Source: Pirellula sp. (GTDB lineage: Bacteria; Planctomycetota; Planctomycetia; Pirellulales; Pirellulaceae). From it: DNA of 42,380 nucleotides. Below the pieces are notes generated by a model. It was not told the DNA's origin. It was given only the letters and a program-made list of their open reading frames with translations, and did no database searches. Shown piece by piece: positions 32,401 through 34,798 of the stretch. Position 1 is the first letter of the stretch. Each line of letters begins with the position of its first letter. The stretch is taken from the NCBI GenBank assembly GCA_025459245.1, contig JALOQZ010000006.1, positions 1 through 42,380 of the forward strand, written 5' to 3'. Made by a program: the position numbers and the translations under genes.

Positions 32401-32833
32401 TTTCGTCCTCCAGATCGTACATCAGCTCGTTCGCGACAATCTTGATGTGCTGACAGTACTTGTCTCCCACGGCGTGGCCGCAATCGCACTTGACTGCCGG
32501 TTTGGTGGGCCCCAGATGCACATAAACGTGGGCTAGCGAATTCGCGGTCTCAACCTCGGTGATGATTTCCCCCGTCGCATAGACAGAGAGGTAATTCACA
32601 AAAAGGGGCTCAATATCAGGCTCAACATCGAAAAGCCCGAAGTCTTGAAACGTTTTCTCTGCCCGCTCAAACCAGTCATCCACAATTGAACGGGGAGCCT
32701 GGGTCGATCGGGCGGATGATTTCGACTGAAGCTGGGGAGGAATCAAGCTGAATCGTTCGTTCAAAACCTCGGAAAAGAGCTTTTTGAAATTCTCAAAGTC
32801 ATTGGTCTTTCGTTTTGGTCTGTTCCGTGACAC
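29489..32833 (-). CDS. SWIM zinc-finger SNF2-family helicase/ATPase
   Basis: I place the start at GTG 32833 because GGAGGA (32838-32843) precedes it at ideal distance; a TTG at 32950 would add 39 residues of poor quality. The product is about 1114 residues. An N-terminal SWIM zinc finger (CDCG...YCQH: Cys116, Cys118, Cys127, His129) is followed by a ~500-residue middle region and a complete SNF2 motor: ADDMGLGKT (680-688), Walker B DEAQ (775-778), 'ALTGTPMENHLGELWSL', 'ALVFSQFTEHLALIRKAL', and 'KAGGTGLNLTAADYVIHMDPWWNPAVEDQATDRAHRFGQ'. It is expected to translocate on duplex DNA and remodel protein-DNA complexes or act in repair. It overlaps acetate kinase by eight bases, so the two are co-translated, an unexpected partnership. 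Confidence 0.92.
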   Translation of the reverse strand: MSRNRPKRKTNDFENFKKLFSEVLNERFSLIPPQLQSKSSARSTQAPRSIVDDWFERAEKTFQDFGLFDVEPDIEPLFVNYLSVYATGEIITEVETANSLAHVYVHLGPTKPAVKCDCGHAVGDKYCQHIKIVANELMYDLEDESSPLSTLLLRKRFSAGSPNLLRFVTDPGEKTLTILENFAKHATPLTPPKGELPDLEQAALARKFVWSIETTNGQLLIHPLIQTMKKTGKGFTKGKRLPPRTIKNEHLDILSPLDLKVLRSCADYGYNWNPSSLQALGELVNAPNVEIDEKPGRILKGMVYLSVKEEDGALSFLLTGATNSAAARTCTFSGEGLFIHDRELSTIYVADLTRAQRDVIQHLVAQPPIPVKHKEKLLSQLLVLQKNLPIVLPEWLAGPRVPDPGNLLLLLRSRSDGQLDFGVRIRTQSGVITYPGSQPAINPGTLDGKPVQWVRATDDELVRADTICSSLRIKPSGEIPFTGVISELNDALEFLERLEQHRNEIEVLWDDKSAKAPKFIGSLHASQLRIEVSSKRNWFGIGGECQIGSESLSLQSLLEKLDGTSNPVLGEFMQLGDGEWVRIQQSLREKLIQLKGACHSDRKSLIMDGSAAPALESLDGMGIDLKATKAWQDCMQKMVRARDLDPQLPEGFSTIMRDYQAEGFKWMSRLSEWGIGGILADDMGLGKTIQTLAVLTSRASEGPTLVLAPTSVGFNWIRETQRFAPSLTPILYRESDRRELLENLKPGDLVVSSYAIALRDGSELAKVDWGTLVMDEAQAIKNARSKTSQTVSTLNAKWTIALTGTPMENHLGELWSLFSVVAPGVLGGWESFRSKYAAPIEKNGCDVSKRLLADRLRPFILRRTKEEVLKELPPRTESVLYVDLSPAERSQYELVRRTAIGELQGIVGLPDQKDQRFKILSLLTRLRQFACHPGIVNKKWDRSSAKLDQLCETLQNLRDEGHRALVFSQFTEHLALIRKALDDQGISYEYLDGSTPAAERQRLVDAFQNGNSTAFLISLKAGGTGLNLTAADYVIHMDPWWNPAVEDQATDRAHRFGQDKPVMVYRIVARDTIEEEILALHETKRDLVEGVLDGAGAAAKLSTQDLVSLIRGNG

Positions 32834-32980
32834 AGAATCCTCCGCTCGCAATCGTTGGTCATCGACAGGCAGCCAGCGACCTGTCCCACCCCCCAGTTTA
32901 ACAGCTCTCCCAAACCAGGACGAGCCACTGAGGTTACGACACAAAAACAACTCCGAGCCGATTATTACGAACCTGAGATC

Positions 32981-33065
32981 TCACGCGAAGGCGGTAAGAC
33001 GCAAAGAAGAATTCGAGTCAAGAACCTAATGCTCCTCCCTTTGCGAGCTTTGCGCCTTTGCGTGA
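32981..33065. repeat. Palindrome P1 of the GxxExxY-associated repeat family
   Basis: The left arm starts TCACGCGAAGGCGGTAAGAC and ends GCAAAG (32981-33006). The right arm CTTTGCGAGC...GCGTGA (33039-33065) pairs with it with a few mismatches, leaving a 32-nt loop. The same arms recur in P2 and P3. It lies between the helicase start and the gene remnant at 33109. Confidence 0.85.
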
Positions 33066-33108
33066 TGCTTCTCTTCCCCTCTGAACAGCTGGAATCTAGG
33101 GCCCCAAA

Positions 33109-33201
33109 GATCGTCGAGTCAATCTATCGATCCCTTTCGGTAACGATCTGTGCAAAGATAGTGTTTCTCGAGTTGCCAACAAATTGACGGAATCGGAGTA
33201 A
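33109..33201 (+). pseudogene. 3' remnant of a second GxxExxY-family gene
   Basis: In the frame starting at 33109 the bases read D-R-R-V-N-L-S-I-P-F-G-N-D-L-C-K-D-S-V-S, then RVANKLTESE and TAA at 33199-33201. The intact gene downstream ends D-R-R-L-G-L-L-I-N-F-G-A-D-L-F-K-D-G-V-S, then RVANKLTESE. The DNA is nearly identical over the last ~35 bases and into the following palindrome. No 5' part is present: upstream lies palindrome P1. It is a truncated duplicate, not a gene. Confidence 0.88.
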
Positions 33202-33209
33202 AAAAGACC

Positions 33210-33292
33210 TCACGCAAAGGCGCTAAGACGCAAAGAAGAAGTGTGTTCAAAGCACTATCGCCCAACACTTTGCGAGCTTTGCGCCTTTGCGT
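33210..33292. repeat. Palindrome P2 of the GxxExxY-associated repeat family
   Basis: Left arm TCACGCAAAGGCGCTAAGAC then GCAAAG (33210-33235); right arm CTTTGCGAGCTTTGCGCCTT then TGCGT (33268-33292). Pairing is near perfect with a 32-nt loop. It begins eight bases after the stop of the remnant gene and ends 35 bases before the intact gene's start. Confidence 0.9.
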
Positions 33293-33327
33293 AATGCAAA
33301 AAACACTCCCAATAGAGAGAATCGAAC

Positions 33328-33717
33328 ATGCATGAAAACGAGATCGCGAAGGTTATCATTGACGTTGGGTTTCAGATTCATCAACAACTTGGACCGGGTT
33401 TACTCGAATCTGTCTACGAGTCGATCATGGTTTACGAGTTAAGGAAACGTGGATTTCAAGTTGTGAATCAAGTTCCTGTTCCCGTGTTCTGGGATGGTGA
33501 GAAGATGGATGTCGGATTTCGCGCGGATTTAGTCGTAGAGCACAAGGTAATTGTCGAGCTGAAGTCAGTCGAAAGTGTTCATCCAGTCCACAAGAAGATC
33601 CTCTTAACTTATCTACGCATTGCGGACCGAAGACTCGGTCTTCTGATCAACTTCGGCGCTGATCTGTTCAAAGATGGAGTGTCTCGAGTTGCCAACAAAT
33701 TGACGGAATCGGAGTAA
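33328..33717 (+). CDS. GxxExxY-family protein (PD-(D/E)XK nuclease-like)
   Basis: The 129-residue protein carries the signature GLLESVY (Gly24, Glu27, Tyr30) that names the family, then 'VGFRADLVVEHKVIVELKSVE' with Asp67 and the E-x-K pair Glu77/Lys79 in the arrangement of PD-(D/E)XK nuclease-like folds, then 'HKKILLTYLRIADRRLGLLINFGADLFKDGVSRV'. Length and motif order are typical and no frameshift is seen, so it should be functional. ATG 33328 lacks a strong ribosome site (AGAGAG at about -12). It sits between palindromes P2 and P3, and a truncated copy lies upstream. The biochemical role of the family is not established to my knowledge; nuclease activity is inferred from the fold, and a link to the palindromes is inferred from position. 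Confidence 0.9.
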   Translation: MHENEIAKVIIDVGFQIHQQLGPGLLESVYESIMVYELRKRGFQVVNQVPVPVFWDGEKMDVGFRADLVVEHKVIVELKSVESVHPVHKKILLTYLRIADRRLGLLINFGADLFKDGVSRVANKLTESE

Positions 33718-33726
33718 CGTTAGACC

Positions 33727-33797
33727 TCACGCAAAGGTGCAAAGACGCAAAGAAGAAGAGGTAGCTCAAAGACCTGCCGCGCTCACCCTTTGCGTGA
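33727..33797. repeat. Palindrome P3 of the GxxExxY-associated repeat family (shortened right arm)
   Basis: The left arm TCACGCAAAGGTGCAAAGAC then GCAAAG (33727-33752) matches P2's left arm. The right arm keeps only CTTTGCGTGA (33788-33797), lacking the GAGCTTTGCGCC part seen in P1 and P2. It starts nine bases after the intact gene's stop, with the same AGACCTCACGCAAAGG junction as at P2. Confidence 0.85.
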
Positions 33798-33841
33798 TGA
33801 TTCTCTCACTTTGAAGAGTCAGACTGGGGTGTTGGGTTCTA

Positions 33842-34798
33842 TCACGAGCAAGATTTTGTAGCCGAAGGTTCTAAGGCTGCAGGAGGAGCCGCAATGACTT
33901 CGATCGGTTCCGCAGTGGATGGATGCGAAAAGCTCAATCGCATCGCATGAAGCATATAGCCTCCATCTCCTGGCAAACCCGGGTTCACAGCAATCGGCAA
34001 TCCCCCCATACCGTACAAAGGGTCCCCAACGAGGGGATAGCCAATAGAAGCGAGATGGATACGAATTTGATGAGGACGACCTGTTTCGATCTCGATTTCG
34101 AAAAGCGTTTCGTGAGCTCGTCGCTGGAGGACAGTCGCAACGCTGCGTGCTCTCTTTCCACTGCTAGACGCGGCATGAACGGTTCCCAATCGGGGGTGGG
34201 GAATCGGACCGATACGTTGATCAATCTCATAGCGATCCTTCTCCGCAACGCCTTGCGCGAGGGCCCGATAGACTTTCCTAATAGAAGGCCATTGTTCGGT
34301 GAGGGCCCGAACGGATCGTTGGTTCAACCCAAAGAGGACAATACCGGAGGTGGCTCTCCCCAGTCGGTGCAAGGGCCGGGCATGAGGGTAATGAGTTCGC
34401 ACCTTCATCAGCAGCGAGTTTTGGTAGAACCCCGCGCCTGGGATTGTTGGCAAACCGCTCGGTTTATTGACGGCAAGAACATCGCTATCCTCGAACAGGA
34501 TATCAAAATGCTGTGGCGTCTCTTCTTCCTCCCAGCCAGGGCGATCCCATACGATGACTTGCCCCGAGGCAATACGACAATCCAAGCCCGCGGGCCTCTC
34601 GTCGATCCAGATCTCTCCGGTCAAGATTCGTTCGGCCCACTGTGAGCTGCTGGAGTGAGGAAACGCGTTCGCCAAATAATCGACGAGCAGCATCCCTTCC
34701 TGTGGCCGTTGGACTTGGTGTCTATAGCGGTAACCGTCGTTGCATCGCATAATGGTCTTACGGTAATCGAACCAATGCGAGTCGGGAACCGAGAGCAT
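33842..34798 (-). CDS. RluA-family pseudouridine synthase-like protein, catalytic Asp replaced
   Basis: I start it at ATG 34798 (318 residues); an upstream start at 34879 would overlap the divergent dgkA gene. The N-terminal part is S4-like ('LLVDYLANAFPHSSSSQWAERILTGEIWIDE'). The synthase domain has 'FEDSDVLAVNKPSGLPTIPG', 'RPLHRLGRATSGIVLFGLN', 'KVYRALAQG', 'FEIEIETGRPHQIRIHLASIGYPLVGDPLYG' and 'HAMRLSFSHP'. In RluA enzymes the third motif is HRLDxxTSG and that Asp attacks uridine; here it is Gly (HRLGRATSG, codon GGG). The rest is well preserved. It may belong to a subgroup using another residue, or be an RNA-binding protein without synthase activity. Confidence 0.85.
   Translation of the reverse strand: MLSVPDSHWFDYRKTIMRCNDGYRYRHQVQRPQEGMLLVDYLANAFPHSSSSQWAERILTGEIWIDERPAGLDCRIASGQVIVWDRPGWEEEETPQHFDILFEDSDVLAVNKPSGLPTIPGAGFYQNSLLMKVRTHYPHARPLHRLGRATSGIVLFGLNQRSVRALTEQWPSIRKVYRALAQGVAEKDRYEIDQRIGPIPHPRLGTVHAASSSGKRARSVATVLQRRAHETLFEIEIETGRPHQIRIHLASIGYPLVGDPLYGMGGLPIAVNPGLPGDGGYMLHAMRLSFSHPSTAEPIEVIAAPPAALEPSATKSCS

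What the first reader, a model, noticed from the sequence alone, without database searches (positions are those of the whole stretch)
32981..33797. GxxExxY nuclease-like gene and its truncated copy are each bracketed by related palindromes
Order on the plus strand: palindrome P1 (32981-33065), 3' remnant of a GxxExxY gene (33109-33201), palindrome P2 (33210-33292), intact GxxExxY gene (33328-33717), palindrome P3 (33727-33797). Remnant and intact gene share the ending SRVANKLTESE plus the junction TAA-N(3-4)-AGACCTCACGCAAAGG, and the offset between copies is about 516 bp, so the duplicated unit contains gene and palindrome together. The proteins have a PD-(D/E)XK-like layout (Asp67, Glu77-x-Lys79). 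This resembles REP/RAYT systems in logic (an enzyme gene flanked by the palindromes it may act on) but with an unrelated enzyme fold. Homologous recombination between palindromes could also explain the remnant.
Basis: partly seen in the sequence, partly recalled or inferred. Interest (0 to 1): 0.78.

Follow-up and report, generated by a model that had tools for sequence, protein, structure and literature searches.

The report
Nuclease gene inside repeat-built hairpin element
A small gene for a likely DNA-cutting enzyme, known only as 'GxxExxY', sits, here and in most of the relatives examined from many bacterial phyla and one archaeon, between mirror-image arrays of short repeats that look like the ends of a mobile element, which would give this nameless gene family and these puzzling repeats a shared explanation.

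Summary
The window holds three related palindromes, an intact GxxExxY gene (PF13366, PD-(D/E)XK fold) and the 3' remnant of a second copy. Elsewhere the gene is bracketed by inverted arrays of 8-10 nt units: 78 of 88 usable phylum loci and 62 of 74 usable named loci (best-scoring, not random), against 14 of 880 and 5 of 740 random placements and 1 of 29 PIN genes. Arm type follows the protein tree (23 changes; shuffled minimum 45). One arm pattern occurs in 23 of 199 genomes, 22 with PF13366, mostly as gene-less hairpins. Copies 84-95% alike sit at unrelated sites; one 500-nt insert (element plus an outer palindrome) faces an empty orthologous site in six relatives read. Genes of the 23S-rRNA intervening-sequence protein (PF05635) share the plan (25 of 29), and an outer palindrome in one bacterial family hosts both kinds. 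Best reading: a dispersed selfish hairpin element whose nuclease acts on its own arms. Movement is inferred from sequence; enzyme action is untested. Nine paper searches found no description.

The parts
32976..33068 (.). Palindrome P1: left arm CTCACGCGAAGGCGGTAAGACGCAAAG, right arm CTTTGCGAGCTTTGCGCCTTTGCGTGATG
   Evidence: ssDNA fold z -4.5, 0 of 200 shuffles as stable
33109..33201 (+). 3' remnant of a second GxxExxY gene copy, ending SRVANKLTESE-stop; the stretch before it is interrupted by stops
   Evidence: (78% to 33625-33717, offset 516)
33205..33297 (.). Palindrome P2 (CTCACGCAAAGGCGCTAAGACGCAAAG ... CTTTGCGAGCTTTGCGCCTTTGCGTAATG)
   Evidence: z -5.6, 0 of 200
33328..33717 (+). Intact GxxExxY gene, 129 aa, PD-(D/E)XK nuclease family; E27, D67, E77, K79 invariant
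   Evidence: PF13366; TIGR04256; invariant residues; model pLDDT 93.8; restriction-endonuclease-like fold
33722..33806 (.). Palindrome P3 (CTCACGCAAAGGTGCAAAGACGCAAAG ... CCTTTGCGTGATGATTCTCT); shorter stem
   Evidence: z -2.1, 8 of 200

Best explanation
The window holds one intact and one decayed tandem copy of a small selfish element. An element is a single gene, GxxExxY (PD-(D/E)XK nuclease family), bracketed by inverted arrays of a few short units (8-10 nt; TCACGCAAAGGCGCTAAGACGCAAAG type here) that can pair as a long stem. SHOWN from sequence: the frequent bracket, arm type tracking protein lineage, near-identical copies at unrelated sites, an orthologous site with and without an element-bearing insert, purifying selection on the protein with its catalytic residues, and gene-less hairpin copies. 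INFERRED: the nuclease recognises its own kind of arm as a DNA hairpin or cruciform and cuts it or the target, and repair or replication copies the element (with or without the gene) into a new site, often the interior of another palindrome or a gap between co-directional genes. Hairpins without the gene would be non-autonomous derivatives. Transcription probably comes from neighbouring genes.
For: Arms: 78 of 88 usable phylum loci and 62 of 74 usable named loci score >=14, against 14 of 880 and 5 of 740 random placements, 0 of 88 and 1 of 74 shuffled flanks and 1 of 29 PIN genes. Arms belong to the element: mispaired flanks reach it in 117 of 870 and 851 of 5402; Mantel r 0.41 with protein identity, 0 of 500 permutations as high; 23 changes of arm class on the protein tree, shuffled mean 56.8, minimum 45; elements of one genome are about as alike as matched pairs, 0.371 vs 0.339, 24 pairs. 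Pattern copies: 229 places in 23 of 199 genomes, reversed control 0; 22 of the 23 hold PF13366 (Fisher p 4e-7); leaving out three genomes whose only place is a gene's own arm, 19 of 20 (p 4e-6 to 5e-6). Movement: five copies in one genus, two of them in one genome, share DNA over the element but not the flanks; a 500-nt insert against an empty site in six relatives read, from three genera; element in 2 of 7 groEL-dnaJ sites of another genus. Selection: dN/dS 0.07-0.12 in five of six pairs, the sixth not computable.
Against: No clear target-site duplication in 39 anchored loci. The 500-nt insert includes an outer palindrome that is also dispersed with other contents, so the GxxExxY element was not seen arriving alone. 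Gene-less hairpins could be made without this enzyme. The association of pattern and gene across genomes is partly built in, because gene-bearing elements carry the pattern. No empty relative of the window's own site was found, and its genome (82% complete) has one PF13366 gene. No activity is known; fold hits are middling (best Z 9.1). Loci came from best-scoring matches. Passing was lower in some phyla (Bacteroidota 26 of 33, Fidelibacterota 0 of 2), and without Bacteroidota the arm-class signal on the tree is weak (6 against a shuffled minimum of 6).
Confidence: 0.6

Rival explanations
1. RNA-level element. The arms matter as an RNA stem: the promoterless gene is read through from the host operon, the stem is processed (RNase III or GxxExxY itself) so that insertion is tolerated, as with intervening sequences of 23S rRNA. 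The nuclease acts on RNA or regulates its own message, and spread is passive.
For: Sense orientation in 86 of 96 contexts with co-directional neighbours; the upstream arm often lies close to the start codon; the same plan is used by PF05635 genes, whose published members lie in 23S rRNA stems cut by RNase III (PMC4990558, passages); an outer palindrome hosts both kinds.
Against: PD-(D/E)XK enzymes mostly cut DNA (recalled). Gene-less hairpins and near-identical dispersed copies need DNA movement. The window element lies antisense to both neighbours. Sense orientation is also normal for operon genes.
Confidence: 0.2
2. Passenger gene. The tandem-unit palindromes arise by replication slippage or template switching, or are moved by another enzyme; GxxExxY genes are only tolerated passengers of such hairpins.
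For: Many hairpins have no gene (26 of 30 pairs taken from the partial list are 32-233 nt apart); several unit families share one outer palindrome; arms gain or lose units between near-identical sites (L016 against G458).
Against: Arm type tracks the protein across samples; 22 of 23 genomes with the searched pattern carry the gene family; the gene is under purifying selection with invariant catalytic residues.
Confidence: 0.14
3. Anti-phage or toxin-antitoxin gene that happens to sit in repeats.
For: Small nuclease, patchy distribution (184 of 392 genomes of the phylum).
Against: No PADLOC or PHROGs match; no relative of the window protein in phage records or, at close range, in viral contigs; the bracket stays unexplained. 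Partner genes were not checked systematically.
Confidence: 0.04

Closest known systems
Intervening sequences (IVS) of 23S rRNA with the S23 / four-helix-bundle protein (PF05635)
   Same: Small ORF inside a stem of terminal inverted repeats, sporadic distribution, suspected selfish element of unknown mechanism (PMC4990558, passages read). PF05635 genes in this phylum show the same plan: 25 of 29 with inverted arms.
   Different: The gene here is a PD-(D/E)XK nuclease; no rRNA was found around it; arm periods are mostly 8-10 nt (96 arms with a clear period) rather than 7 or 14 (17 of 24 PF05635 arms), and the unit sequences differ.
REP/REPIN palindromes with RAYT (TnpA-REP)
   Same: Enzyme gene flanked by palindromes, with gene-less palindromes elsewhere in the same genomes (family features recalled; papers seen only as a search listing).
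   Different: No Y1/HUH enzyme; arms are inverted arrays of short units with no GTAG/CGTC tag (tags as named in the title of PMC3733652, listing).
Short tandemly repeated repetitive (STRR) sequences and tRNA-Leu intron P6b stems of Nostoc
   Same: Inverted arrays of 7-nt units that fold as hairpins, function unknown (PMC2670836 and PMC4476775, passages read).
   Different: No gene or enzyme was linked to them in those passages; unit length matches the PF05635 elements rather than the GxxExxY ones.
Homing endonuclease genes in group I introns, including a PD-(D/E)XK example (I-Ssp6803I; recalled, not looked up)
   Same: A nuclease gene carried inside a structured element that it could help to spread.
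   Different: No self-splicing intron found: Rfam had no match in 32500-34300 and none over the element in 20 loci.

Membership tests
GxxExxY protein family (PF13366 / TIGR04256) | Score above the curated cut-off | tested here: met
   131.6 bits against 22; 133.6 against 35
PD-(D/E)XK nuclease superfamily | Core fold and D...ExK residues | tested here: met
   D67 and E77-x-K79 invariant in 51 sequences; model pLDDT 93.8 nearest SSO0001 Z 9.1 (rmsd 4.6, 101 aligned), Hjc 1gef Z 6.5 (rmsd 3.5, 87 aligned); plain Foldseek had no hit at E <= 0.001
PD-(D/E)XK nuclease superfamily | Nuclease activity | not testable with these tools
   needs purified protein
REP/RAYT | Y1/HUH (TnpA-REP) enzyme beside the palindromes | tested here: not met
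   the only Pfam match of the gene is PF13366; neighbours are SNF2-type and pseudouridine-synthase genes
REP/RAYT | GTAG or CGTC tag at one foot of the palindrome | tested here: not met
   feet read AGA(C/T)CTCACGC and GCGT(G/A)ATG; tags as named in the title of PMC3733652 (listing)
23S rRNA intervening sequence | Lies inside 23S rRNA | tested here: not met
   no Rfam match in 32500-34300
23S rRNA intervening sequence | ORF is the S23 protein (PF05635) | tested here: not met
23S rRNA intervening sequence | ORF bracketed by a stem of terminal inverted repeats | tested here: met
   in the window the bracket is two complete hairpins
23S rRNA intervening sequence | Excised from RNA by RNase III | not testable with these tools
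   needs RNA work
Classical insertion sequence | DDE, HUH or other known transposase gene | tested here: not met
   one gene in the element, PF13366 / TIGR04256 only
Classical insertion sequence | Target-site duplication | tested here: inconclusive
   length classes near expectation in 39 anchored loci apart from 4 five-nt cases against 0.9 expected; at most AG at the one resolved site
Known anti-phage defence system | Match to a PADLOC model | tested here: not met
   0 families

The most novel reading that the evidence does not exclude
GxxExxY genes are the autonomous members of a hidden superfamily of hairpin transposons found in bacteria and archaea. A lone PD-(D/E)XK nuclease recognises the array of short units in its own arms and moves both gene-bearing and gene-less hairpins into the interior of other palindromes. 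The S23/IVP elements of rRNA and elsewhere are a second branch with the same niche, and long-known hairpin repeats such as the STRRs of cyanobacteria are their remains.
Probability: 0.4. Interest if true: 0.95.

Novelty: new variant of a known kind. Interest (0 to 1): 0.84.

Why it matters
It ties a widespread nuclease family without a function, a common class of palindromic repeats for which the searches found no name, and the old puzzle of rRNA intervening sequences into one testable idea. If the nuclease moves the hairpins, it is a transposition chemistry without a known transposase, with arms whose code can be read from sequence and matched to each protein.

Tried and rejected
Phage records gave no relative of the window protein, and a viral-contig scan with the single protein (close relatives only) gave none, so a phage origin was not pursued. 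PADLOC and PHROGs gave nothing. A search for target-site duplications found no clear signal. Synteny of the window's own site failed: in the two nearest homologues of its pseudouridine synthase (L293, L294) no SNF2-type or GxxExxY gene was found in the locus. groEL-dnaJ sites show presence and absence, but the spacers are too divergent to place ends. The L029 site is not cleanly empty in its relatives. The first flank listing and the first profile used the wrong strand for minus-strand loci; corrected from then on. (60 of 88) was replaced (78 of 88), which measures from the domain ends so that arms inside N-terminal extensions are not lost. Four of 92 genes and six of 80 named loci were dropped for short flanks; one of 30 loci each for PF05635 and PIN. 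Mispaired flanks score >=14 more often (117 of 870, 851 of 5402) than random places, because unrelated elements share unit types. The ten phylum loci under the threshold look by eye as if they carry unit arrays; that is not a count.

Full report
WHAT IS IN THE WINDOW. The gene (33328-33717, 129 aa) is PF13366 / TIGR04256. P1 and P2 fold far better than shuffles (z -4.5 and -5.6), P3 only modestly (z -2.1, 8 of 200). The neighbours are a SNF2-type helicase gene and a pseudouridine synthase gene, both on the minus strand, so the gene lies antisense to both. The own genome has one PF13366 gene and 9 places of the left-arm pattern, three of them in the window, against 0 for the reversed control. 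Of the other six, read, four (L005, L008, L009, L010) run into another repeat family, L006 has a facing arm just upstream, and L007 shows neither.

A FREQUENT BRACKET. A phylum search found PF13366 in 184 of 392 genomes. I read 91 loci (the window gene, 30 given, 60 fetched; best-scoring matches, not a random draw), which hold 92 distinct genes, 88 with enough flank. The best local complementarity between 300 bp upstream and downstream of the domain reaches 14 in 78 of 88; in 14 of 880 random placements in the same loci; in 117 of 870 mispaired flanks; and in 0 of 88 shuffled flanks. The arms are inverted arrays of short units: CACAGAG, CGCAGAG, CACGGAG, CGCAAAG, CACAAAG, CACGAAG, CATGAAG, CACAGAT and others; where an internal period is clear (96 arms) it is 8, 9 or 10 in 93 and 11 in 3. 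Ends tend to read TT(A/C)ACC...GGT(G/T)AA, more clearly downstream. A scan of named genomes kept the best 80 of 582 relatives; 62 of the 74 with enough flank pass, against 5 of 740 random placements and 851 of 5402 mispaired flanks. The 74 span 14 named phyla plus 3 unassigned records; loci of 13 of the phyla pass, among them one Methanosarcinales archaeon (1 of 1), Cyanobacteriota (6 of 6) and Bacteroidota (26 of 33); Fidelibacterota is 0 of 2. Of seven plasmid records with a hit I fetched four and read three; all three show facing arms by eye: Sphingomonas between fabD and fabG, Bacteroides after radA, Bernardetia. As a control family, PIN genes pass in 1 of 29, their mispaired flanks in 3 of 812.

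ARMS BELONG TO THE ELEMENT. Across 140 bracketed genes, protein identity and arm similarity correlate (Mantel r 0.41, 0 of 500 permutations as high; 0.40 after GC; 0.29 for pairs between the two samples only). On the protein tree the arm class changes 23 times against a shuffled mean of 56.8 and minimum of 45 (126 labelled rows); the CAC/CGC class 27 times against a minimum of 29; among the named rows the arm class 13 times against a minimum of 15; without Bacteroidota 6 against a minimum of 6, which is weak. Host phylum also keeps some signal (25 against a minimum of 28), so descent is not wholly detached from hosts. Elements of one genome are about as alike in their arms as expected from their proteins (24 pairs, 0.371 vs 0.339); G012 alone holds five elements with visibly different arms.

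GENE-LESS COPIES. The exact pattern ACCACAGAGRCACAGAG occurs 229 times in 23 of 199 genomes, the reversed control never. Of those 23 genomes 22 have PF13366, against 96 of 199 overall (Fisher p 4e-7). This is partly built in, since a gene-bearing element carries the pattern: in three genomes (G061, G068, G193) the only place is a gene's own arm; without them it is 19 of 20 (p 4e-6 to 5e-6). Of 30 plus/minus pairs taken from the partial list, 26 are 32-233 nt apart, too close for the gene, and 4 are 352-472 apart. Of 30 such loci read, 5 (L266, L270, L281, L283, L287; L266 and L287 are one element) had a GxxExxY gene in the locus and 25 had none.

MOVEMENT. In one genus, elements L016, L024, L029, L034 and L048 (the last two in one genome) share 84-95% DNA identity that stops at or near the element's ends, within 100 nt of the domain on either side. 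One search lists 24 pairs at 80% identity or more; others among them are orthologous sites whose identity runs through the flanks. Joined flanks of the L016 site give one match across the junction in 13 of 17 genomes of the family (some at 71-76% identity, where paralogues are possible). I read six of these at base level, from three genera, and all six are empty. G362 is filled, and so is G458, by the spacing of its two flank matches and its left junction. The insert is 500 nt with at most a 2-nt (AG) duplication. It contains more than the element: an outer palindrome (TACCTTTATAAAAATATTTTGACCAATTTTGGCAAAA ... TTCCGACTCGTTCGGGTTAGG) that recurs elsewhere. In 20 places with its left half that I fetched, plus extensions, the interior varies: CGCAAAG hairpins without a gene (L371, L376), other unit families, an almost bare one (L365, 38 nt), and in L382 a PF05635 gene (E 1e-12) between arms of its own. 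The right half scored poorly in several of these, L382 among them (14, against 30-42 in the clear cases). So the outer palindrome appears to host both gene kinds, and the GxxExxY element was not itself seen arriving alone. In another genus the groEL-dnaJ spacer holds the element in 2 of 7 genomes, a short spacer in 3 and other inserts in 2.

THE SECOND FAMILY. PF05635 genes (named 23S rRNA intervening sequence protein) in the same phylum pass the bracket test in 25 of 29, their mispaired flanks in 21 of 812; 17 of 24 arms with a clear period have 7 or 14 nt. None of 20 such loci had an rRNA match in Rfam. Published IVS work describes an ORF in a stem of inverted repeats, horizontal spread and an unknown mechanism (PMC4990558, passages). 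Heptamer hairpins of unknown function are known in Nostoc (PMC2670836 and PMC4476775, passages). No paper found in the held library joined these to GxxExxY: searches. The papers that name GxxExxY or PF13366 are incidental where seen (PMC8934634 and PMC12085832, passages; PMC9756366 as a listing only). Most subscription papers are not held, so this is no proof of novelty.

THE ENZYME. The model is confident (pLDDT 93.8) and restriction-endonuclease-like: best Z 9.1 to SSO0001 (4ic1; Cas4 by recall), archaeal Holliday-junction resolvase Hjc 6.5; values under 8 may mean only a common arrangement, and plain Foldseek had nothing at E <= 0.001. dN/dS is 0.07-0.12 in five pairs, not all independent; a sixth had no usable dS. 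By a simple longest-ORF rule the gene is in sense with both neighbours in 86 cases, antisense to both in 10, mixed in 44 and undefined in 4; 86 of 96 is far from an even split, though ordinary operon genes would also show this.

CONCLUSION. That the GxxExxY gene and its arms form one dispersed element is well supported (about 0.9, my estimate). That the nuclease acts on the arms to spread the element is the best mechanism but inferred (about 0.6). The window is a modest example, a tandem pair with one decayed copy; the wider pattern is the finding.

Noticed in passing
L101-L130 (PF05635 loci): Four-helix-bundle / IVP genes are bracketed by inverted arrays of short units, mostly 7 or 14 nt in period, in 25 of 29 usable loci.
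   Followed up: partly
L362-L387, L016: An outer dispersed palindrome in one bacterial family holds different tandem-unit hairpins, a GxxExxY element (L016) and an IVP gene (L382) in its interior.
   Followed up: partly
own genome, L005, L008, L009, L010: Single CTCGCAAAGGCGCTAAGTCGCAAAG-type arms followed by a second repeat family, ATCTTTTTGCC(N)TCATTTTTTTGCC, with facing GGCAGAAAAATG units in L005.
   Followed up: no
L284: A gene-less hairpin whose flanks (about 15 nt) are themselves inverted repeats (TCCGGAATGGTTTGA / TCAAAACCATTCCGGA), as if inserted into another hairpin.
   Followed up: no
L013, L020, L025, L062, L069: ATGAACC at the left end of the arm: the upstream arm may be translated as an N-terminal extension of the GxxExxY protein.
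   Followed up: no
L034:1267-1377: A group II intron domain match (Rfam RF01999, minus strand) lies just upstream of the element.
   Followed up: no
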